Shown here: positions 3,169 through 59,001 of the stretch, in pieces | Layout: the number at the start of each line of letters is the position of its first letter | Position numbering within the stretch: the stretch's first letter is position 1 | Assembly (NCBI RefSeq): GCF_015840915.1 | Contig: NZ_CP060398.1 | Location: 1,426,001 to 1,490,000, forward strand | Length of the DNA: 64,000 nt | Reading direction: 5' to 3' | DNA from: Synechococcus sp. CBW1002 | GTDB taxonomy: Bacteria > Cyanobacteriota > Cyanobacteriia > PCC-6307 > Cyanobiaceae | Made by a program: the position numbers and the translations under genes | Notes under the pieces: model-generated | The model's input: only the letters and a program-made list of their open reading frames with translations | Databases searched by the model: none | What the model was told of the DNA's origin: nothing

Positions 3169-4716
3169 ATGCAGAAGCGCAAGACCTTTCGCCCCTGGCA
3201 GCCGCAGCAGGCCACCCTGCTGCCGCCGTCACCGCGTGAGTGGCTCTCAGAAGACCACCAGGTGTATTTCCTGCTGGACCTGGTGGATGAGCTGGATCTC
3301 TCCGCGATCCTCGTACCCGCTCAGGCCAAGGACCCCCGCGGAGAGAAGGGATTCGATCCACGCATGATGACGATGCTGCTGCTTTACGCCTACTGCGTGG
3401 GCATCGTCTCCTCCAGGAAGATCGAGCGGGCCTGCTACGAGGATCTGGCATTCCGCGTGCTGACCGGCAACCAGCAGCCGGACCACAGCCGAATCAGCGA
3501 GTTCCGCCGGCGCAACCTTGATGCCCTCAAGGGCCTGTTTATTCAGATCCTGCGCCTGTGCCAGAAGGCGGGGATGGTGAGCCTGGGCCATGTGGCCCTC
3601 GATGGCACCAAGGTGCAGGCCAATGCCTCCAAGCACAAGGCGATGAGCCACGAGCGGATGCTCAGGGCGGAGAAGGAGCTCCAGAAGGAAATCAACGCCT
3701 TGATCCGCAAGGCCGAGATCCTGGATGCCCAGGAAGACCGGCGCTACGGCAAAGGAAACCTGGGCAGTGAACTTCCCGATGAGCTGCGCCACAAGCAGGG
3801 CCGCCTCGCAAAAATCCGTCAGGCCCGCAAGGAGATGGAGGCGGAAACCGCTGCAGCTGCAGCGCGGCAGCGGCAGGAGGAAGCCGAGAAGGCCAGAGCC
3901 AAAGCGACCGCAGCCGAGGAATCGGATGGATCGGCCCCTGAGCAGGCCGAGCTGAACAGGAAAGCGGAAGCCGCAGCGGCAAAGGCAGCAGCGGCGGGGG
4001 ACAAAGCCATCGAGGCCGCCGAGAGCGCTGGCCTCGAGCCACCAGATCTGGAGCCACTCGCCTCTGACGCGATGCCCAGGCGTGGTCTGGCGAGAAAGGC
4101 TGACGGCACACCGACGGCCAAGACCCAACGGAATTTCACAGATTCCGACAGCCACCTCATGCAGTCCGGCGGCACCTACCTGCAGGGCTACAACTGCCAG
4201 CTGGCGGTCGACAGTGACCACCAGGTGATCGTGGCGGTGGGCGTCAGCAACCAGCCACCGGACGTGGAGCACCTGGAGCCCATGCTGGAGCGGATCGCCG
4301 CCAGCGCCGGTGAACTGCCGGACGTGATGACGATGGATGCGGGCTACTGGAGCGACGACAACGCAGGTCACTGTGAGGACCTTGGCATTGACGCCTACAT
4401 CGCCACCGGCCGTCTGCCGCATGGGAAGCCGCCACCGCCACAGCGAGGACCGCTGCCCAGAGATGCCGACGCCAGAACCCGCATGGCCCGCAAGATCAGA
4501 AGCAAGAAGGGATCCAGGATCTACGCCCAGCGCAAAGCGATCGTGGAGCCGGTGAACGGCCAGATCAAGGAAGGCCGGGGCCTGCGGCGGTTTCTCTTGC
4601 GGGGCCTGGAGAAGGTCGATGGTGAATGGCATCTGATCGCTGCCACCCACAACCTGCTCAAGTTGTTCCGGTACAGGCGATCACAGCAGCAGCTCTGGGC
4701 AGCAGCGACGGGATGA
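3169..4716 (+). CDS. IS1182-type transposase (DDE)
   Basis: 515 residues, apparently intact. The N-terminal transposase domain spans about residues 10-170 (LLPPSPREWLSEDHQVYF, then RVLTGNQQPDHSRISEF, then VALDGTKVQANAS). An Ala/Glu-rich coiled-coil insertion follows at about 175-300. The C-terminal DDE part shows DSHLMQSGGTYLQGYNCQLA, MTMDAGYWSDDN and KAIVEPVNGQIKEGRGLR. ATG 3169 fits the homologous start (MQKRKTFRPW). About 140 bp of noncoding sequence follow, ending ACAAACTC just before the CTAG where IS630 sits. That end is similar to the IS5-delta ends and probably marks this element's right border. Confidence 0.9.
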   Translation: MQKRKTFRPWQPQQATLLPPSPREWLSEDHQVYFLLDLVDELDLSAILVPAQAKDPRGEKGFDPRMMTMLLLYAYCVGIVSSRKIERACYEDLAFRVLTGNQQPDHSRISEFRRRNLDALKGLFIQILRLCQKAGMVSLGHVALDGTKVQANASKHKAMSHERMLRAEKELQKEINALIRKAEILDAQEDRRYGKGNLGSELPDELRHKQGRLAKIRQARKEMEAETAAAAARQRQEEAEKARAKATAAEESDGSAPEQAELNRKAEAAAAKAAAAGDKAIEAAESAGLEPPDLEPLASDAMPRRGLARKADGTPTAKTQRNFTDSDSHLMQSGGTYLQGYNCQLAVDSDHQVIVAVGVSNQPPDVEHLEPMLERIAASAGELPDVMTMDAGYWSDDNAGHCEDLGIDAYIATGRLPHGKPPPPQRGPLPRDADARTRMARKIRSKKGSRIYAQRKAIVEPVNGQIKEGRGLRRFLLRGLEKVDGEWHLIAATHNLLKLFRYRRSQQQLWAAATG

Positions 4717-16077: not shown

Positions 16078-17107
16078 CTTGATTACCCAGCTCGCTCCGT
16101 GCAGGCCATTTGTCCCGACTAGAGTGGTACGCAGATACTGTTCTGGCCATGGCGCGCAACGGCATCCAGTTCCAGAAGGGCCTGTCTCTGCCTGAGTTCC
16201 AGCGGCTCTACGGCACAGAGGAGCAATGTGAGGCTGCTCTGGAGAAGGCTCGCTGGCCGGATGGGTTCCGGTGCCCTCGCTGCAATAGGCATGAGCATGG
16301 CCTGGTTTACGGCCGACGACTCAAGCGCTACCAATGCCGCAACTGCGGCCATCAGACAACACTCACGGCCGGCACGATCCTGCAGGCCACCAAGCTCCCT
16401 CTGACAAACTGGTTCCTGGCCTTTTATCTGATCGGCCAGGCCAAGAACGGGATCTCCTCGCTGGAATTGAGTCGTCACCTGGGCGTCAACTACGACACCG
16501 CCTGGCTGCTTCACAACAAGATCCTGCGGGCGATGAGCGAACGGGAGGAGGAGTATCTGCTGCGGGGAAAGATTCAGATAGATGATGCCTACCTCGGCGG
16601 AGAACGCACTGGCGGCAAGGTGGGTCGCGGATCAGAAAACAAGATTCCGATCGTGGCAGCCGTCTCGTTGAACGAGTCCGGCCATCCGATCCACGCAAAG
16701 ATCGCGCCGGTGAATAGCTTCAGTTCAGAGGCGATCGCTAACTGGTCCTTGAATAATCTGACTCCCGGTAGCGATGTACTCTCCGATGGCCTGGCCTGCT
16801 TCCGCGCCGTGACCACGGCCAACTGCCACCACAAGGCGAATGTCACCACCGGCCAGCACCCCAACGACCTGCCGCAGTTCCGCTGGATCAACACCCTGCT
16901 GGGCAACCTAAAGACCAGCTTCAACGGCACCTTCCATGCCTTCAACTTTGACAAGTACGCCAAGCGCTACCTGGGCGGCTTCTGCTTCCGCTTCAATCGG
17001 CGCTTTGCCATGGCTGAGATGACCGAGCGCATCGCCAATGCAGTCTGCTGCTGCATGCCTTGCACGGAGCGGGATCTCAGGCTTGCGGAGGCTTATGGGT
17101 AATCAAG
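16078..17107 (+). mobile_element. IS1595-family element, complete
   Basis: Inverted ends CTTGATTACCC and GGGTAATCAAG are flanked by the 8-bp duplication TAATAAGT (16070-16077 and 17108-17115). Inserted in the fucosyltransferase-like gene. Confidence 0.93.
16149..17102 (+). CDS. IS1595-family transposase (ISXO2-like)
   Basis: About 317 residues. The N-terminal zinc ribbon has paired cysteines (CPRCNRH and CRNCGHQTT). The ISXO2-like DDE/N domain has IQIDDAYLGGERTGGK, GSDVLSDGLACFRAV and the region WINTLLGNLKTSFNGTFHAF. ATG 16149 (MARNGIQFQKGLSLPEF) fits family starts; a TTG at 16110 would add 13 residues. Intact. Confidence 0.93.
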   Translation: MARNGIQFQKGLSLPEFQRLYGTEEQCEAALEKARWPDGFRCPRCNRHEHGLVYGRRLKRYQCRNCGHQTTLTAGTILQATKLPLTNWFLAFYLIGQAKNGISSLELSRHLGVNYDTAWLLHNKILRAMSEREEEYLLRGKIQIDDAYLGGERTGGKVGRGSENKIPIVAAVSLNESGHPIHAKIAPVNSFSSEAIANWSLNNLTPGSDVLSDGLACFRAVTTANCHHKANVTTGQHPNDLPQFRWINTLLGNLKTSFNGTFHAFNFDKYAKRYLGGFCFRFNRRFAMAEMTERIANAVCCCMPCTERDLRLAEAYG

Positions 17108-17280
17108 TAATAAGTTGAAATTGGGTCTGGATCGGGCCAAATCACTTCGAGAGGCTCTCCAATCATCCTGCCAACCCAATAGCAAGAGCACAAGCCTCGG
17201 ATTCGGTCCGCGAATCCACCCGCGACCATCCTTCTGCCTCCAGATAGTCGTATCGTCGTAAAGCGCATCAGCCCATGCAT

Positions 17281-17763
17281 TCAGGGCTCACAGTATCATG
17301 AGAGTTGATGAAGGAGATCAGGCTTTCTCGCAAATCAGCGAATACTCAACCCATCACAGCAGATAACAGCCAGCTAGAACAAAGCAAGGGCATGCTTAGC
17401 GAAGAAATCATTGCGCTGACCAGTCAGAAAACGCCAATCAGGCAGCATAGATCTCTCGCAAAATGTAAGCTTTCAGGGGGCGGGACAGCATACGGCGCAC
17501 TTGGCCTCGGCCGAACCCATAACGATGTCCTGATTCCCGCCTGCATCCCAGGCTGAGACCACTTGGGTTGGGCGCCCCCTCCGGCTGGCAATTCCGACGC
17601 GGACTGGTTGTCGTGGCCAGCTAACGATCCGCAGGGGAACATCCACAAAGAAGCTTTCACCGGATCTGGGAAGATCATCCCAACGAAGCACTTGGAGAAG
17701 GACAGTGACAAAGCCATGACTGATCGGTAGACTGCCCATAGAGCGTGATGATCCCCAAAGGCC
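17281..17763. other. intergenic stretch, no certain gene
   Basis: It lies between the divergent starts of the broken fucosyltransferase-like gene and the glycosyltransferase at 17764. A plus-strand frame from about 17566 to 17730 (LGWAPPPAGNSDADWLSWPA, ending KAMTDR) has coding-like composition and may be the 3' remnant of a gene. Another short frame at 17305-17556 is weaker. I cannot assign either. Confidence 0.4.
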
Positions 17764-20322
17764 GTGGCAAAGCGCAAAAAGCACAAGCCAATGGAGATGA
17801 ATCAGCAAGAAGCAACTCTTAACAGGAATGACAGCGCCGAGGCCAACACGCAGGCAGAGAGGCATCAAGCAGAAGCAATGATGCCCAGCGTCAGCATCTG
17901 TACAGTCACGCATCAGAGACAAGCTTATCTGACGCTTGTAGAACAGTGCATTCTCAACCAAACCTACCCACTTACCAAGATTGAATGGATAATCCTGGAT
18001 GACTCCTCTGAAGACCACCCTGATTTCCATCCAATCGAGCAGAGCGGCCTAACGATCAACTATCAGAGGCTGCCAAAAAAGCTCAGGCTTGGGGAAAAAA
18101 GAAATCTCAGCCACACCTTCTGTCGCGGAGACATCATCATCTATTTCGATGATGACGATTACTATCCGCCCGAAAGAGTGGAACACGCTGTCAACCAATT
18201 GGAGCAGAGTGGATGCATGGTGGCCGGATCCACAGTGCTGCCCATTCTATTTCTGCCAGATGAAGAGCTGTGGGTCGAGGGACCCTATGACCCCAATCAT
18301 GCAACCTCAGGAACGCTCGCATTCAGGCGAGCACTGCTGGAACAAACAAGCCATGACGATGAAGCCGTTTGCCTTGAAGAGAAGAGTTTTCTCAAGGACT
18401 ATTCCATACCAATGGCCCAGCTGGAACCAAGATTCACAATAATCAGCATCTTCCATGGCGGCAATATCATTGACAAGCGAGAGTTGATTCAACAGGTAGA
18501 AAACACGCGCATTCAGCGTGTCCCCACACAAGACCCGAATCAAATCGGGTTGATCAGGCAGCTCGCCAAAGCTTATGGGAATGCAAATAGCAAGACATCG
18601 ACTGAAATGACACAGCCAGGAGCAACAAGACCAGTTTCTTCCGCACAACAGCTGAGCCCGCCTATGGACGAGGAGAAACTCAGACTCCCAGCAAGATCCA
18701 TCATTGAGCTTGATGATCAGGACATTCATTTTAAGGTAGTGATCCCATCGTTTAATGCCGAGAGGTACATAGAAGCCTGCATTCGGTCGCTTCAAGAGCA
18801 GAACCATAGAAATCTTGAAGCGATTATTATTGATGATGGATCAACCGACAACACGGCGGCAATCGCAAGTGCTGCAATCGAGGGGGATTCACGATTTCGA
18901 ATAACCAGCAATACCACAAATAGTGGTAGCTCATTGCAAAGTTTTCTTCAAGGCACAAGATTGCTAAGGCCGTCTCTCGACGATGTATTAATTACGCTTG
19001 ACGGTGATGACCAGTTGCTAGGGAAAGATGCACTACAGATCGTGGCATTTACTTATCAGAGCCAGCAATGCTTACTCACCTATGGAAGCTTCATTCGCGC
19101 CAGCGATCAACGACACATTGGTGGCGCTTACGACACTCGGACAGTGATCACAAACAGCTTTCGCCAAGCACCCTGGCGAGCATCGCACCTGCGCACTTTC
19201 AAGGCTGGCTTGCTGGAGCTACTTAGTATTGGCGACCTGAGCGATGAACATGGGAACATTATAAAACAGGCCGGGGATATTGCGTTGATGCATCCACTAC
19301 TGGAGATTTCTGGGCACAGAGCTGTCCACATTCCCTCCGCGATTCATCTCTACAACGATCAGAACCCAATCAATGTGCACAAAGTTAATCATCAGAGTCA
19401 AGCCCAGACGTCCATACAGATTAGGCAGAGAGCATCCTATGCACATGCTCCATTTATCACCCTATACAGTCCACCAATCGGGAGTGGGCACAGCACTACC
19501 ACTCAGCTGAGGACACCTCAAATGCCTGGCACTTGCAAGGCAACTCAAGATTTATCCATGATCTCAGTTACTATTCCCACCAAGGAAAGACCAAGGCACT
19601 TGATCAATATTATCCGATGTTTTCAGTCTCAGACATGGCCCAACAAAGAGCTGTTGATCTTGGATGACAGCCGAGAACGATGCGCTGAAGCCGAAGCAAT
19701 CGCGCAGAGTGATTCGAGGATCTGCTATATCCACCAGCATCACCGAGATAGTATCGGCACTAAGCGAAAGAGACTCTGCGCTGCTGCCAAAGGCGAGTAC
19801 ATCGCTCATTTTGACGATGATGATTATTACGCACCTGATTATCTTGAGACAATGCTGAATAGCCTCTTGGCAGGCAGGTACGACTTCGTTAAGCTCCGAA
19901 GCTGGTGTTCGCTCCACGCGCCAACGAGGATTTACGGCTTTTGCAATACAGCCCTGCTAGACAGCTCCTGCTCCTATCGAATATCATCTTCCGGAATCGA
20001 AAGGTTTCCCAGGCTGTTTTCTAGCGAAGAAAAGGATCGATCGCTATACGGATATGGCTTTTCGTATTTTTATCGGAGCGATCTTCTCAATAAAGTCAAC
20101 CACCCGGAAGACATCAACCACGGCGAAGACATCAAGCTTGCCATGGACTGCATATCAGCCGGGGCAAGCATTGGCCTTGTCGACGATTACAGGGGACTTG
20201 CTATTCACATTATTCATGGAGGCAATACCTCATCCTGCTTTGCTCAGCACTTGATCTTGGAGCAGAATCTCACCAAGATGACAAGCATTCTCCCTTTACC
20301 AAACACGTTTCTTTCTCTTTAG
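17764..20322 (+). CDS. three-domain family 2 glycosyltransferase
   Basis: 852 residues from GTG 17764 (ATG 17794 is an alternative), with no membrane segment or signal peptide. There are three GT-A domains in tandem. The first (about 42-245) has VSICTVTHQRQAYL, WIILDDSSE and DIIIYFDDDDYYPPERVE. The second (322-550) has VVIPSFNAERYIEACI, IIIDDGSTDNTA and LITLDGDDQL. The third (600-840) has SVTIPTKERPRHLI, LLILDDSRE and IAHFDDDDYYAPDYLE. The aspartate clusters are the metal and nucleotide-sugar sites; all three domains keep them, so one chain may add several sugars. Its first and third domains are homologous to the second and first domains of the protein at 54930. AT-richer than its IS neighbours. 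Sugar specificity unknown. Confidence 0.85.
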   Translation: MAKRKKHKPMEMNQQEATLNRNDSAEANTQAERHQAEAMMPSVSICTVTHQRQAYLTLVEQCILNQTYPLTKIEWIILDDSSEDHPDFHPIEQSGLTINYQRLPKKLRLGEKRNLSHTFCRGDIIIYFDDDDYYPPERVEHAVNQLEQSGCMVAGSTVLPILFLPDEELWVEGPYDPNHATSGTLAFRRALLEQTSHDDEAVCLEEKSFLKDYSIPMAQLEPRFTIISIFHGGNIIDKRELIQQVENTRIQRVPTQDPNQIGLIRQLAKAYGNANSKTSTEMTQPGATRPVSSAQQLSPPMDEEKLRLPARSIIELDDQDIHFKVVIPSFNAERYIEACIRSLQEQNHRNLEAIIIDDGSTDNTAAIASAAIEGDSRFRITSNTTNSGSSLQSFLQGTRLLRPSLDDVLITLDGDDQLLGKDALQIVAFTYQSQQCLLTYGSFIRASDQRHIGGAYDTRTVITNSFRQAPWRASHLRTFKAGLLELLSIGDLSDEHGNIIKQAGDIALMHPLLEISGHRAVHIPSAIHLYNDQNPINVHKVNHQSQAQTSIQIRQRASYAHAPFITLYSPPIGSGHSTTTQLRTPQMPGTCKATQDLSMISVTIPTKERPRHLINIIRCFQSQTWPNKELLILDDSRERCAEAEAIAQSDSRICYIHQHHRDSIGTKRKRLCAAAKGEYIAHFDDDDYYAPDYLETMLNSLLAGRYDFVKLRSWCSLHAPTRIYGFCNTALLDSSCSYRISSSGIERFPRLFSSEEKDRSLYGYGFSYFYRSDLLNKVNHPEDINHGEDIKLAMDCISAGASIGLVDDYRGLAIHIIHGGNTSSCFAQHLILEQNLTKMTSILPLPNTFLSL

Positions 20323-54507: not shown

Positions 54508-54600
54508 CGGCCAGGGGCGAAAGGTCTTGCGCTTCTGCATGCCCGAGTGTATCGCCCAGATCCATTGCAGTCACTGGGATCAGGGCAGATTGATGGGCGG
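54508..54600 (-). pseudogene. 5' end of an IS1182-type element
   Basis: Inverse of the leader and start of the transposase at 3169 (MQKRKTFRPW); GATCCATTGCAGTCACTGGG is shared with 3129-3148. The gene is lost after the ISAs1 insertion; beyond it only PR-stop remain. Confidence 0.8.
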
Positions 54601-54929
54601 CTGTGGAGAGACTGGGTGCTGATCTATGCGCGACAGGCTCCTGGTCCTCTAATGGCGAAGCTGAGACACTAGCTTGGCTTTCCATGCCGCTTGAGCATTC
54701 TAACGACGCACTGCACAAGAGTATAAATCAACTTATCTATGCTAGTCTCTTTCCATTTTGGCCGAAGAAGTGTCGATGCACCCTGATAGCCGCCGTGGCA
54801 CACCGAGACAATTTAGACTGATTCGACCTCTCAGAGTGTCAGAGGCAAATGAGCCTTTCTCGAGCCCAGAAGACACCACAGCCACGACAAGGCAGACTGG
54901 CGAATGTCCGGACATCGTAATGGAAGATC
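54601..54929. other. leader region of the glycosyltransferase-sulfotransferase gene
   Basis: AT-rich noncoding DNA with several stops in all frames. I see no convincing promoter pair or terminator and no IS end. It presumably carries the promoter of the large gene that follows. Confidence 0.35.
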
Positions 54930-57900
54930 ATGAGTAGGGATAGATCACACCAGCAAACATCGCACCTCAGCCCCAGCAGGCAGCCAATCGACCCCGCAAC
55001 AAATGTCGAAGAAATACCAAAGATCTCCGTCATTGTTCCAACAAGACACAGAGCCCACTCTCTGCCTCAGCTTCTAATGCTTTATGACCGACAAAGCTGG
55101 TCCAATAAGGAGATTCTAGTTCTAGATGACAGCGACAACCCTGACTCTGCTTTTCGTGACAAGACTGAGCATCGAAGTGATGCATTTTATTGGCATACGA
55201 GTAGGAGACTAAGCATCGGTGAGAAGCGCAACCTGCTTGCCAGTCGAAGCAACGGCGATATAATTGCGCACTTCGATGAAGACAATTATTACGCGGCGAA
55301 TTATCTTGAGATGATGTGGAAGGCGATGAGCACCAGTGGCTGTGATGTCGTGAAGTTAGCCGGCTGGTTTTGTCTGCATGAGCCGAGCGGGAGACTTGGC
55401 TACTGGGATACAGCAGATCATGAATCCGATCATTTTAATTTCTGTGGCACCGAGCCAGTTGGCAAGAGACTTGAAAGATTTACAGCTGCAGCCTATCGTT
55501 CATTCCAAACAGGGCATGGTTTTTCATGCATGTACAGAAAGTCATGCTGGGAACAAACTCGATTTCCAGACCAAGAATTGGAAGAGGATTCGCATTTCGT
55601 CGAAAGAGTCTTACAGAGAAAAGGATCAGTCAGCTTTGTCCAAGATGATATTGGAATCTGCTTGCATATCATCCGCGCGAACACTGCTTCTCGATGCTTC
55701 CCTAATCGCCTTATATCCGAAAAAGAACTGAGGCACATCTTCCAAGGATACATTCTAACATCAGAAAAGACACGAAAGCAGGATGTCCGAGAAGACAGTA
55801 TCATCGGCCATTCAACACCTGTTTCTGCAGCAGGCACTACAAGACAACAACAGAAGACAGTCACGCACAAATCAGAAAATCGAGTTGGCTCCAGTAGCAA
55901 GGGCTTCGCCTACACAGGTAGATCACACGAGCCAATGCAGTCAGCGGAACGACTTCGGCACAATAAGACAATGAAGAATTTTCCAGACGAAGGAAGCGAG
56001 GAAATCAAAGTTAGTCTATTTACTGTAGCACACAATCGATCGACCCTATTGCCGCTTCTTGAAAAATGCATTCTCAGTCAGACATATTCACGACTCCTTA
56101 CAGAATGGGTAATCATTGATGACTCAGATCTTGATGGGCCCATCTTTTCGCCAACTCCAAATACGGGTCTCAAGACAAAGTTGATCCGACCCAAAAACAA
56201 GCAGCCCCAAGGCAGGGAAAGAAGTATTAGTTACGATCATTGCGATGGAGATATCATTATTCATATGGATGAAACTGCATATTATCCACCATCACGAGTT
56301 GAGCACGCAGTCAAGCGCCTCATGGACACTGACCACGACGTAGCTGGCGCAGACACTTTACCCATCATCAATATGCCGAAGCGAGAACTTTGGCTACTAG
56401 GCCCCTTCAACCACAACCAGGTCACTGCCAATACACTAGCCTTCAAACGGGCTGCCCTAAACAAAATCCGCGGGGACCAGCAGGATTCTGCGACTAATGA
56501 AGAAGAGTATATTTTGCAGAATCACTCATTTCCGTTGGCGCAGCTTGATCCGATCAAGACCATTGCCTGCGTTGAATATCAATCGAGTATATTCCCAAAT
56601 GGAGAACTGACTCATGCTAGATATAGTCTCAAGCCGAAGAAAGCAGATGATAGCCTTTTGAAAGAAATTATTTCAAGCGCCAGACTTGAAGAGTACCAGA
56701 TCTCACTAGCGACGAGCCGACAATTCGCCAAGAGTCAAGGCATGGATCAACTATTGAGTCCTAGGAAGACTCTTGCAGAGAGAACTATTCAGCCTGCGAG
56801 AGGATATAGCTCATCACAACGGTCTACAAGAGTTGCAGTTATCACTCCCTATCACAACGAGCCAACACCAATCTTGCGACGCTGTCATGAAAGCGTGCTG
56901 AGACAGAGTAGTTCTTGTAGTCACTTTTTCATTGCCGATGGCCCTGGCAATCCAGAGCTTGATAGCTGGGACTGCCGGCACATCATTCTTGGCAAAGGAC
57001 ATCGCGATAATGGCAATACTCCTCGAGGGATAGGCAGCCTCTGCGCAATGAACGAGGGCTATGATGCCATCGCTTACCTCGATGTCGACAATCTATACAA
57101 AGATGACCATATCAGGCTAGCACTTGCGCGCAGAGAAGAAACACAAGCGGATGTTATATTTACCTATCGACATGTATTTTTTCCAGACGGGCAAGTAATC
57201 CCAACTCTGCTAGAAGAAGATACAAACAAGGCGCATGTCGACACCAGTTGCATGGTACTCTTTCGACCTGCTTTCTCCGCACTTTCTATTTGGAGCGAGA
57301 TGCCATCGAAATATGGGCCGATCTGCGATCGCGTTATGTTTCACCATCTAATTCATAATCATTCCTGTGCATGGCTAGAAGATGCGACAGTTCTATTTGA
57401 AAGCTGGTACCTCGGCCATTTTTATCTGATAGGTCGCTGTCCGCCAATCAACGCCAAGATCGTGCCGAGGCGCTCAGCACTAGAGTGGGAAGCTATAATT
57501 AGGCAATATAAACAACAATCACGCGGAGCAGCTTCATTTGCTGGGCCCATCATTCATGAGGCGCCAAGCATAGGTATTGCAGCAATCATGGGCCCAGCAA
57601 GATCCGGAACTTCAGTGCTGCAGCGAAGTCTTTGCCTTCACTATCCATTCGTAGGCATACCGGAGCACTCTTTAATTAGTCAGTATGCAGAGTTAGTTGG
57701 GCATGATCCAGAGGTCAGGCATGAAGGAAGCTACCTCCTCGAAAGATTTGACAGCATTGGAAAGAGTGATCCAAGGTTTGAATGGGTCCGTAAGCACGTT
57801 GTAGATCTCCGGCCCATAGTCTCCCCGCAAAAGAACTATAATCTGGCTGAGTTATATATCGCGGTTGTCGAATCAACTCTATCGAGAAGGGCTAAGGAGT

Positions 57901-58652
57901 TCATTGCCCGCACGGGATCGGGATTTGTCATAGACAAGACAATAACGTCAAGCGAATATGCACATCACTTGCTCAAGGCCGTTCCAAGTGTTAAGTGCAT
58001 TCTCTCTATGCGCAACCCTATTGACCAAATTTGTGCGATGAGAAAGATCTCACAAGAAAAGCCAGGCTCATGGCAAGAGCCGCATCGCACAATTGACACC
58101 CTAGCATTTCAATATATAATACGAATTCTTAATCCCCTAATTGCAGCTCCGCCTAATCGACTTATTATCGTGAGTCACGAAGGATTTGTTCGTAATCGAG
58201 AGGAATCAATTCTTAAGATTGCCAGATTTCTTCTGGATTCTCGACAATTCGCAAACAATAGAAACGAGAATCAAGCGGCTATGCTACTGGAGTGCTTAGG
58301 CGATGCCAAGACTACTATCTATGAGGATGAGCTGAGGTCGATAGATGACAGCCTTGCTTTTGAGTTGACAGTAAATGATGAGCCATGGAAGAAGAATAGC
58401 CTTCAAAAAGCCATCAGCCATAGTGCACATTCCTATAATCTAACTGACTTCATGACGGCCGATGAATACGCCTATCTATACGCCCTTTTTCAGCCTTTGC
58501 ATGAGCGGTACTGGAAGATAGTTGGCCCTAGCCACAAAGGAGGGATTGGCGTCAGAGTCCCTGATCTGGCAAGAGAGCACCAGGCATGGGTGGCCGCTCT
58601 TTGTTCTTCGCTAGAAGAACGAGTAAGGGATAATGTTGATCATATTTTTTAA
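54930..58652 (+). CDS. giant glycosyltransferase (three GT2-like domains) fused to a sulfotransferase
   Basis: 1240 residues from ATG 54930 (a stop lies three codons upstream). Domain 1 (about 32-270): ISVIVPTRHRAHSLPQLL, EILVLDDSDN, IAHFDEDNYYAANYLE. Domain 2 (359-560): VSLFTVAHNRSTLLPLLE, WVIIDDSDLDGP, DIIIHMDETAYYPPSRVE, where the usual DxD cluster is reduced to DET. Domain 3 (635-850): VAVITPYHNEPTPILRRC, AIAYLDVDNLYKDDH. Domain 4 (880-1220): sulfotransferase with the 5'-phosphosulfate loop IMGPARSGTSVLQRSL and the 3'-phosphate motif CILSMRNPIDQICAMRK. No membrane segment. It probably builds and sulfates a surface glycan using nucleotide sugars and PAPS. Domains 1 and 2 are homologous to domains 3 and 1 of the 17764 protein. 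AT-rich, flanked by IS debris. Confidence 0.85.
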   Translation: MSRDRSHQQTSHLSPSRQPIDPATNVEEIPKISVIVPTRHRAHSLPQLLMLYDRQSWSNKEILVLDDSDNPDSAFRDKTEHRSDAFYWHTSRRLSIGEKRNLLASRSNGDIIAHFDEDNYYAANYLEMMWKAMSTSGCDVVKLAGWFCLHEPSGRLGYWDTADHESDHFNFCGTEPVGKRLERFTAAAYRSFQTGHGFSCMYRKSCWEQTRFPDQELEEDSHFVERVLQRKGSVSFVQDDIGICLHIIRANTASRCFPNRLISEKELRHIFQGYILTSEKTRKQDVREDSIIGHSTPVSAAGTTRQQQKTVTHKSENRVGSSSKGFAYTGRSHEPMQSAERLRHNKTMKNFPDEGSEEIKVSLFTVAHNRSTLLPLLEKCILSQTYSRLLTEWVIIDDSDLDGPIFSPTPNTGLKTKLIRPKNKQPQGRERSISYDHCDGDIIIHMDETAYYPPSRVEHAVKRLMDTDHDVAGADTLPIINMPKRELWLLGPFNHNQVTANTLAFKRAALNKIRGDQQDSATNEEEYILQNHSFPLAQLDPIKTIACVEYQSSIFPNGELTHARYSLKPKKADDSLLKEIISSARLEEYQISLATSRQFAKSQGMDQLLSPRKTLAERTIQPARGYSSSQRSTRVAVITPYHNEPTPILRRCHESVLRQSSSCSHFFIADGPGNPELDSWDCRHIILGKGHRDNGNTPRGIGSLCAMNEGYDAIAYLDVDNLYKDDHIRLALARREETQADVIFTYRHVFFPDGQVIPTLLEEDTNKAHVDTSCMVLFRPAFSALSIWSEMPSKYGPICDRVMFHHLIHNHSCAWLEDATVLFESWYLGHFYLIGRCPPINAKIVPRRSALEWEAIIRQYKQQSRGAASFAGPIIHEAPSIGIAAIMGPARSGTSVLQRSLCLHYPFVGIPEHSLISQYAELVGHDPEVRHEGSYLLERFDSIGKSDPRFEWVRKHVVDLRPIVSPQKNYNLAELYIAVVESTLSRRAKEFIARTGSGFVIDKTITSSEYAHHLLKAVPSVKCILSMRNPIDQICAMRKISQEKPGSWQEPHRTIDTLAFQYIIRILNPLIAAPPNRLIIVSHEGFVRNREESILKIARFLLDSRQFANNRNENQAAMLLECLGDAKTTIYEDELRSIDDSLAFELTVNDEPWKKNSLQKAISHSAHSYNLTDFMTADEYAYLYALFQPLHERYWKIVGPSHKGGIGVRVPDLAREHQAWVAALCSSLEERVRDNVDHIF

Positions 58653-58689
58653 TATGTCTAGAGAAATCTGAGGGCTAGTTATTCCGTAT

Positions 58690-58720
58690 GTTGGGTGAAG
58701 CTGCTACGCGGCAGATTCAA
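58690..58720 (-). repeat. IS91-like terminus, isolated
   Basis: Inverse of TTGAATCTGCCGCGTAGCAG followed by CTTCACCCAAC, the same terminus as at 25016-25041 and about 30350-30377. No transposase next to it. Confidence 0.55.
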
Positions 58721-59001
58721 TCCCCAGCAAACGAACCAGTACGCGCGTACGCCCTCGCGCCCGAAACACCCACGGCCAGGCCAGAGCGCCCTTGCCACTC
58801 TGGTCATGAGGACATCGGGCCATGGCCGATGACATCTTTGGAGGCCTGACCCCGAAAGCAAACGTAGCCTGGGATTCGAATTGCGTTCCCTGCCCTGGCG
58901 ACGGCCCCCCGGTTTCAGGAAACGAACCAGTACAGCTCTGCACGCCCTCGCGGCCGAAACACCCATGGCCAATGCCAAAGCCCTTAGCCACACTGGTACT
59001 G
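58721..59001 (+). repeat. unidentified element end, copies 3 and 4
   Basis: 58721-58908 repeats 44345-44530 (CAGCAAACGAACCAGTACG to the start of MADDIFGGLTPKANVAWDSN, with V for A in VPCPGDG). From 58909 a second, diverged copy begins CCCCGGTTTCAGGAAACGAAC, whose outer bases resemble the IS3-gamma end. It is cut at 59001 by IS5-epsilon. Confidence 0.6.

What the first reader, a model, noticed from the sequence alone, without database searches (positions are those of the whole stretch)
54930..58652. 1240-residue fusion of three glycosyltransferase-like domains with a sulfotransferase
One frame encodes three GT-A-type domains followed by a PAPS-dependent sulfotransferase with both nucleotide-binding motifs. 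Such a chain could polymerise and sulfate a glycan without release of intermediates. Sulfated extracellular polysaccharides are known in cyanobacteria, but I do not know this domain order as a described enzyme.
Basis: partly seen in the sequence, partly recalled or inferred. Interest (0 to 1): 0.72.

Follow-up and report, generated by a model that had tools for sequence, protein, structure and literature searches.

The report
Orphan glycosyltransferase–sulfotransferase fusion, probably peptide-modifying
A 1240-residue protein in a cyanobacterium really does join three sugar-transferase-like domains to a sulfate-transferase domain; its relatives sit beside a peptide-secretion machine and a small secreted-peptide gene, so it most likely decorates a secreted peptide rather than building a polysaccharide, although the copy in this window has lost those partners and some catalytic residues.

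Summary
In detail: window 54930-58652(+) is one intact 1240-aa frame with three Glycos_transf_2 domains (GT1, GT2, GT3) and a C-terminal Sulfotransfer_3 domain (ST). Qualifications: GT2 has lost its DxD (DETA, where relatives have DDDD); ST keeps the 5'-PSB, but the usual 3'-PB serine is alanine. GT2-GT3-ST is not a recent join: three genomes in two other genera of the family carry it at 34-36% identity. The N-terminal GT1 is found only here. In all three relatives the gene lies within 0.4 kb of an HlyD adaptor that adjoins a C39-peptidase ABC exporter; between them is a small ORF with a conserved double-glycine leader, under purifying selection. The same exporter clade elsewhere sits beside APH-HopA1 proteins, domains known from RiPP dehydration. 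I propose a peptide-modifying glyco/sulfotransferase of a secretion cassette laid out like Xanthomonas raxX-raxSTAB. No enzyme activity is shown. In the window genome the gene is an orphan in an IS island: no related peptide or closely related exporter was found, and the homologous slot holds only an IS and a truncated histidine kinase.

The parts
54930..58652 (+). 1240-aa ORF, GT1-GT2-GT3-sulfotransferase fusion
55020..55784 (+). GT1: GT-A-type domain (residues 31-285), IGEKRN and FDEDNYY motifs present; absent from the three full orthologues; 54% identical to the first domain of a 496-aa protein in G009
56007..56729 (+). GT2: GT-A domain (residues 360-600) with degenerate motifs (QGRERS, MDETAYY): likely pseudo-enzyme in this copy
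56829..57515 (+). GT3: GT-A domain (residues 634-862), DNGNTPR and LDVDN motifs; best conserved part (53% to G075)
57576..58649 (+). ST: Sulfotransfer_3 domain plus C-terminal extension (residues 883-1240)
57591..57608 (+). 5'-PSB PAPS-binding motif GPARSG
58011..58037 (+). 3'-PB motif RNPIDQICA; Arg kept, usual Ser replaced by Ala
54591..58724 (.). single-copy stretch holding the gene; repeated sequence on both sides, 54% of the window is repeated

Best explanation
The protein belongs to a small picocyanobacterial family of GT2-GT3-ST fusions that modify a ribosomally made peptide before secretion. Proposed steps: (1) a precursor with a double-glycine leader is made; (2) the fusion enzyme adds one or more sugars to its core with the GT-A domains, and the ST domain transfers sulfate from PAPS to the sugar or to a core residue such as Tyr; (3) the C39 domain of the ABC exporter cuts after the GG and exports the core with the HlyD adaptor and a housekeeping outer-membrane channel. 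Shown: the domains, the conserved cassette in three relatives, the coding nature of the peptide, the exporter domains. Inferred: that the peptide is the substrate, the order of modifications, the acceptor residues. In the window genome the gene is an orphan: cassette partners were not found, the homologous slot is overrun by an IS, and GT2 is degenerate. It either works on something else, with GT1 in place of GT2, or is on its way out.
For: Three orthologues (G062; G075 = Synechococcus sp. BSA11S; G291 = Microcystis elabens FACHB-917) all lie beside a C39-ABC transporter plus HlyD. Between HlyD and the gene each has a small ORF starting MG(H/D)F.QLND..AELL.GG. G075 against G291: pS 0.62, pN 0.22 over the peptide; 0.67 and 0.13 over the leader; Shine-Dalgarno-like sequences in two of three. 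The adjacency survives inversion of the gene in G062. About 33 exporters form a clade well apart from long-type C39 transporters; other members sit by GG-leader peptides, and at G098 and G120 by proteins with APH plus HopA1 domains, known RiPP dehydration enzymes (PMC9486802). So this position is used by peptide-modifying enzymes. RaxX/RaxST/RaxA/RaxB is a precedent for sulfation coupled to such an exporter (PMC6637879). Orphan status: no leader match in the own genome; its only short-type C39 exporter is in a different, YcaO-type cluster (by eye); slot comparison.
Against: Only three loci, two of them in one genus. No biochemical data. No peptide or exporter partner for the window copy itself. 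The NYGQY motif of the peptides also occurs in a peptide of an exporter locus without ST (G194), so Tyr is not diagnostic of sulfation; the G062 peptide has no Tyr. The ST profile and fold do not favour tyrosylprotein sulfotransferases over glycan sulfotransferases. Proteins further along in G062 and G291 carry sulfotransferase-like motifs by eye, which could mean a surface-glycan island around the cassette.
Confidence: 0.5

Rival explanations
1. Glycan assembly enzyme: the tandem GT-A domains build an oligosaccharide or polymer (lipid-linked or surface glycan) and ST sulfates it; the neighbouring peptide exporter is coincidental.
For: Best Foldseek hits of the GT2-GT3-ST model are two-GT-A-domain polymerases (chondroitin polymerase K4CP, heparosan synthase 2). 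Cyanobacterial sulfotransferase genes incl. PF13469 mostly lie in EPS clusters (PMC8205485). The related GT1-GT2 protein of G009 lies beside other probable glycan genes (by eye).
Against: The conserved neighbours in all three orthologues are peptide-secretion genes; no Wzx, Wzy or polysaccharide exporter was recognised by eye beside them. The fold match has low inter-domain confidence (pTM 0.40; TMq 0.18), and other two-domain hits are a collagen galactosyltransferase and LARGE1, which act on protein-linked acceptors. GT2 is degenerate in the window copy.
Confidence: 0.25
2. In the window genome the gene is a decaying remnant stranded in an IS island and has no present function.
For: 54% of the window is repeated sequence; the gene has 46.5% GC and GC3 0.44 against 0.86 in a core gene of the same genome; GT2 motifs and the 3'-PB Ser are lost; partners not found; no copy in the sister genome G023, whose homologous slot is empty.
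Against: 1240 codons remain open; GT1, GT3 and 5'-PSB motifs are intact; GC differs by codon position as in coding DNA. The related 852-aa paralogue in the window is also intact and AT-rich, so low GC may mark acquisition rather than decay.
Confidence: 0.2
3. The peptide cassette is real but the fusion acts on a different secreted protein, not on the GG-leader peptide.
For: In G075 and G291 the peptide ORF is on the opposite strand from the fusion gene, so the two are not in one operon.
Against: The peptide is conserved at this position in all three loci, has the same strand as the fusion gene in G062, and is the only recognisable substrate of the exporter nearby.
Confidence: 0.05

Closest known systems
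Xanthomonas raxX-raxSTAB (RaxX, RaxST tyrosylprotein sulfotransferase, RaxA adaptor, RaxB C39-type exporter)
   Same: sulfotransferase gene beside a peptidase-containing exporter, an adaptor and a small GG-leader peptide gene
   Different: here the sulfotransferase is the C-terminal domain of a glycosyltransferase chain; no specific RaxX/RaxST relation was seen; the published survey reports raxST homologues in Cyanobacteria but none with raxX and most without raxA/raxB (PMC6637879)
Class V lanthipeptide systems (APH-type LanK + HopA1-type LanY), incl. cyanobacterial type-B (PMC9486802)
   Same: the same exporter clade has such APH-HopA1 proteins as neighbours in G098 and G120; leader peptide with a dedicated modifying enzyme
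   Different: dehydration there; glycosyl and sulfuryl transfer proposed here
Bacterial two-domain GAG synthases (K4CP chondroitin polymerase, heparosan synthase 2)
   Same: two GT-A domains in tandem in one chain
   Different: no sulfotransferase in those chains (own knowledge); neighbours here are peptide-secretion genes; GT2 metal motif lost in the window copy
Cyanobacterial sulfated EPS clusters such as xss/synechan (PMC8205485)
   Same: glycosyltransferases and sulfotransferases together in a cyanobacterium
   Different: separate genes plus Wzx/Wzy export there; one fused chain beside a peptide exporter here
Cyanobacterial GG-leader secreted peptides (EbfG with PteB, PMC4997328; bacteriocin clusters, PMC3140520)
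   Same: double-glycine leader and C39-type exporter
   Different: no sulfotransferase or glycosyltransferase is mentioned in PMC3140520 and no glycosyltransferase in PMC4997328

Membership tests
Glycosyltransferase family 2 (Pfam PF00535) | profile score over the curated cut-off | tested here: met
   95.4 bits against 23.3, three stretches
Glycosyltransferase family 2 (Pfam PF00535) | DxD metal motif in each catalytic domain | tested here: inconclusive
   present in GT1 (DED) and GT3 (DVD), absent in GT2 (DETA)
PAPS sulfotransferase (Pfam PF13469) | profile score over the cut-off | tested here: met
   50.8 bits against 27; fold agrees
PAPS sulfotransferase (Pfam PF13469) | 5'-PSB and 3'-PB motifs with the essential basic residue and Ser | tested here: inconclusive
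   5'-PSB intact; 3'-PB Arg kept, Ser at R+8 is Ala in the window and G075, Ser in G291; both motifs degenerate in G062
raxX-raxSTAB-type sulfopeptide cassette | ST gene linked to C39 exporter, HlyD adaptor and GG-leader peptide, in the orthologues | tested here: met
   G062, G075, G291
raxX-raxSTAB-type sulfopeptide cassette | the same linkage at the window copy | tested here: not met
   no exporter, adaptor or leader peptide found in the window or in the homologous slot
raxX-raxSTAB-type sulfopeptide cassette | tyrosylprotein sulfotransferase activity on the peptide | not testable with these tools
   needs enzyme assay or mass spectrometry
raxX-raxSTAB-type sulfopeptide cassette | ST domain specifically related to RaxST/TPST | tested here: inconclusive
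   ST profile finds a bacterial ST and heparan 3-O-ST at E up to 10; a low-confidence model matches heparan-type ST and TPST about equally
Two-domain GAG synthase (K4CP type) | tandem GT-A domains | tested here: met
   with low inter-domain confidence
Two-domain GAG synthase (K4CP type) | both GT domains catalytically complete | tested here: not met
   GT2 of the window copy lacks DxD; it is complete in the three relatives

The most novel reading that the evidence does not exclude
A new class of secreted bacterial peptide that is both glycosylated and sulfated by one multidomain enzyme, encoded with its own C39/HlyD exporter in free-living picocyanobacteria.
Probability: 0.3. Interest if true: 0.8.

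Novelty: new variant of a known kind. Interest (0 to 1): 0.58.

Why it matters
RaxX is the bacterial sulfated, exporter-coupled peptide found here as a precedent. If the three cassettes do what their layout suggests, sulfopeptide-type secretion also exists in free-living picocyanobacteria, coupled to glycosylation in a single chain. They give a small, concrete gene set (exporter, adaptor, peptide, fusion enzyme) with which to test whether such peptides act in cell-cell interaction. The comparison also shows the position beside one exporter clade being filled by quite different modifying enzymes (APH-HopA1, GT-GT-ST).

Tried and rejected
Recent two-gene join: rejected for GT2-GT3-ST. Copies in phages: none found; plasmid hits cover only single domains; viral contigs gave only GT-domain matches. 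ST relatives elsewhere in the phylum: none beyond G000 and G062 in a sample of 386 genomes at E 1e-8. A cassette for the window copy: sought by leader peptide, C39 family, leader DNA pattern and slot comparison; not found, but a divergent peptide cannot be excluded. Tyr content of the peptide as a sign of sulfation: considered (the G062 peptide lacks Tyr and its ST lacks both PAPS motifs) but not used as proof, since NYGQY also occurs in a peptide of an exporter locus without ST (G194) and n = 1. A genome-contig scan with the window protein found nothing; the alignment scan named two of the three orthologues. An NHLP/YcaO-type exporter in the own genome was considered as partner and set aside as a different kind of cluster.

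Full report
Check of the observation. The frame at 54930-58652(+) is real: ATG start, 1240 aa, no internal stop. Pfam finds three Glycos_transf_2 stretches and one Sulfotransfer_3 stretch, with both families over cut-off. NCBIfam gives only weak partial hits to GT enzymes, none over cut-off. AlphaFold2 gives GT-A folds with pLDDT mostly above 90 for GT2 and GT3; the ST domain, modelled from four sequences at mean pLDDT 55, still has sulfotransferases as its best structural matches.

Catalytic state. Comparing the window copy with its three orthologues: GT2 is degenerate here (QGRERS for LGAKRN, MDETAYY for DDDDYY); GT3 keeps DNGNTPR and DVD; ST keeps the 5'-PSB GPARSG and the 3'-PB Arg, but has Ala at the usual Ser. 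GT1, present only here, has IGEKRN and DED. A simple reading is that GT1 took over from GT2; this is inference. In G062 the ST domain has lost both PAPS motifs while GT2 and GT3 look complete, so single domains of this chain appear to be lost one at a time.

Age of the fusion. Among 400 genomes of the same family, three others carry GT2-GT3-ST: G062 and G291 in genus g6, G075 in g35. The window copy is 34-36% identical to them over the shared part; G291 and G062 are 64% and 41% identical to G075. This is not a recent join. The sister genome G023 has no copy. GT1 is closest (54%) to the first domain of a 496-aa GT1-GT2 protein in G009, and the own genome has further multi-GT proteins using the same domain types (863, 852 and 506 aa).

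Neighbours of the relatives. In all three orthologue loci the gene is within 0.4 kb of an HlyD-type adaptor that overlaps or adjoins a C39-peptidase ABC exporter of about 730 aa. Between HlyD and the fusion gene lies a small ORF, antisense to HlyD, with a strongly conserved double-glycine leader: MGHFTQLNDDDAELLAGG (G075), MGHFSQLNDDDAELLSGG (G291), MGDFAQLNDNEAELLSGG (G062). Between G075 and G291 it has pS 0.62 and pN 0.22 (leader 0.67 and 0.13), as for a real coding gene. NCBIfam gives a weak, sub-threshold match to 'CTB family bacteriocin'. G291 is Microcystis elabens FACHB-917 and G075 is Synechococcus sp. BSA11S.

The exporter clade. A search with the G075 exporter separates about 33 close short-type relatives (E below 1e-190) from long-type C39 transporters (E about 1e-95). 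In the loci fetched only the three above have the fusion gene. Several others have GG-leader peptides near the exporter. At G098 and G120 the neighbour is an 800-850-aa protein with APH and HopA1 domains. APH and HopA1-like proteins together dehydrate Ser/Thr in class V lanthipeptides, and a cyanobacterial type-B group is described (PMC9486802). So the position next to this exporter is used by peptide-modifying enzymes, which strengthens the reading of GT2-GT3-ST as one.

The window genome. The gene sits in a 4.1-kb single-copy stretch between repeated sequences; 54% of the window is repeated. Its GC3 is 0.44 against 0.86 for a core gene of the same genome. No leader peptide was found by protein or DNA pattern. 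The only short-type C39 exporter of the genome belongs to a cluster with a YcaO-like protein (by eye). The homologous slot, between a radical-SAM gene (88% identical to that of G062) and a second conserved gene, holds the cassette in G062, nothing in the sister genome G023, and an IS transposase plus a truncated histidine kinase in the own genome. G098 has a histidine kinase and a response regulator in its exporter locus (by eye), so the fragment may be the remnant of such a locus. The window gene is thus an orphan about 200 kb away. Whether it moved from that slot is not shown.

Mechanism. The best-supported model is a peptide-modifying glyco/sulfotransferase coupled to C39/HlyD export, laid out like raxX-raxSTAB (PMC6637879), which lacks the glycosyltransferase part. 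It resembles that system in layout; membership is not shown: sulfation of the peptide is untested, the ST domain is not specifically RaxST/TPST-like in the tests made, and the window copy lacks the linkage. The main rival is a fused glycan synthase with sulfotransferase, supported by fold similarity of the tandem GT-A domains to K4CP and heparosan synthase and by the usual place of cyanobacterial sulfotransferases in EPS clusters (PMC8205485). A second rival, for the window copy alone, is decay.

Novelty. Text searches for a sulfotransferase-glycosyltransferase enzyme tied to double-glycine peptides or RiPPs in cyanobacteria found no such description in the held library. The library covers open-licence papers only, so this is not proof. 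I class it as a new variant of a known kind: sulfopeptide-type secretion cassettes, with an unusual fused modifying enzyme.

Noticed in passing
L203 4500-6905(-); L206 11817-14348(-) and 563-3079(+): In G098 and G120 the same exporter clade lies beside 800-850-aa proteins with APH and HopA1 domains and Ser/Arg-rich GG-leader peptides without obvious Cys: possible class V lanthipeptide-like dehydratases acting on Cys-poor peptides.
   Followed up: partly
17764-20322(+): An intact 852-aa paralogue with three GT domains in another order (GT2-like, middle GT, GT1-like) also lies in the window's IS island; a similar 863-aa protein lies at G000:C1 about 267-269.5 kb.
   Followed up: partly
L085/L086 (G000:C1:1906000-1932000): The own genome has a RiPP-like cluster: two ABC transporters (one with C39), an adaptor-like protein, a YcaO-like protein and a probable FAD enzyme, interrupted by IS elements (read by eye).
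   Followed up: no
L054/L055 joined, 16104-18899(-), G062: The G062 orthologue has lost both PAPS motifs of its ST domain and its peptide core has no Tyr; a single case, but it fits loss of sulfation there.
   Followed up: partly
L055 about 3971-4627 and L058 2975-3853: Further proteins with sulfotransferase-like P-loop motifs by eye (KAGGSS, FRSGSTFFF) downstream of the cassettes in G062 and G291; the G291 one has no Pfam match.
   Followed up: no
window, whole: 54% of the window is repeated sequence, largely transposase genes; the gene and the 852-aa paralogue lie in two of seven single-copy stretches over 1.5 kb.
   Followed up: yes
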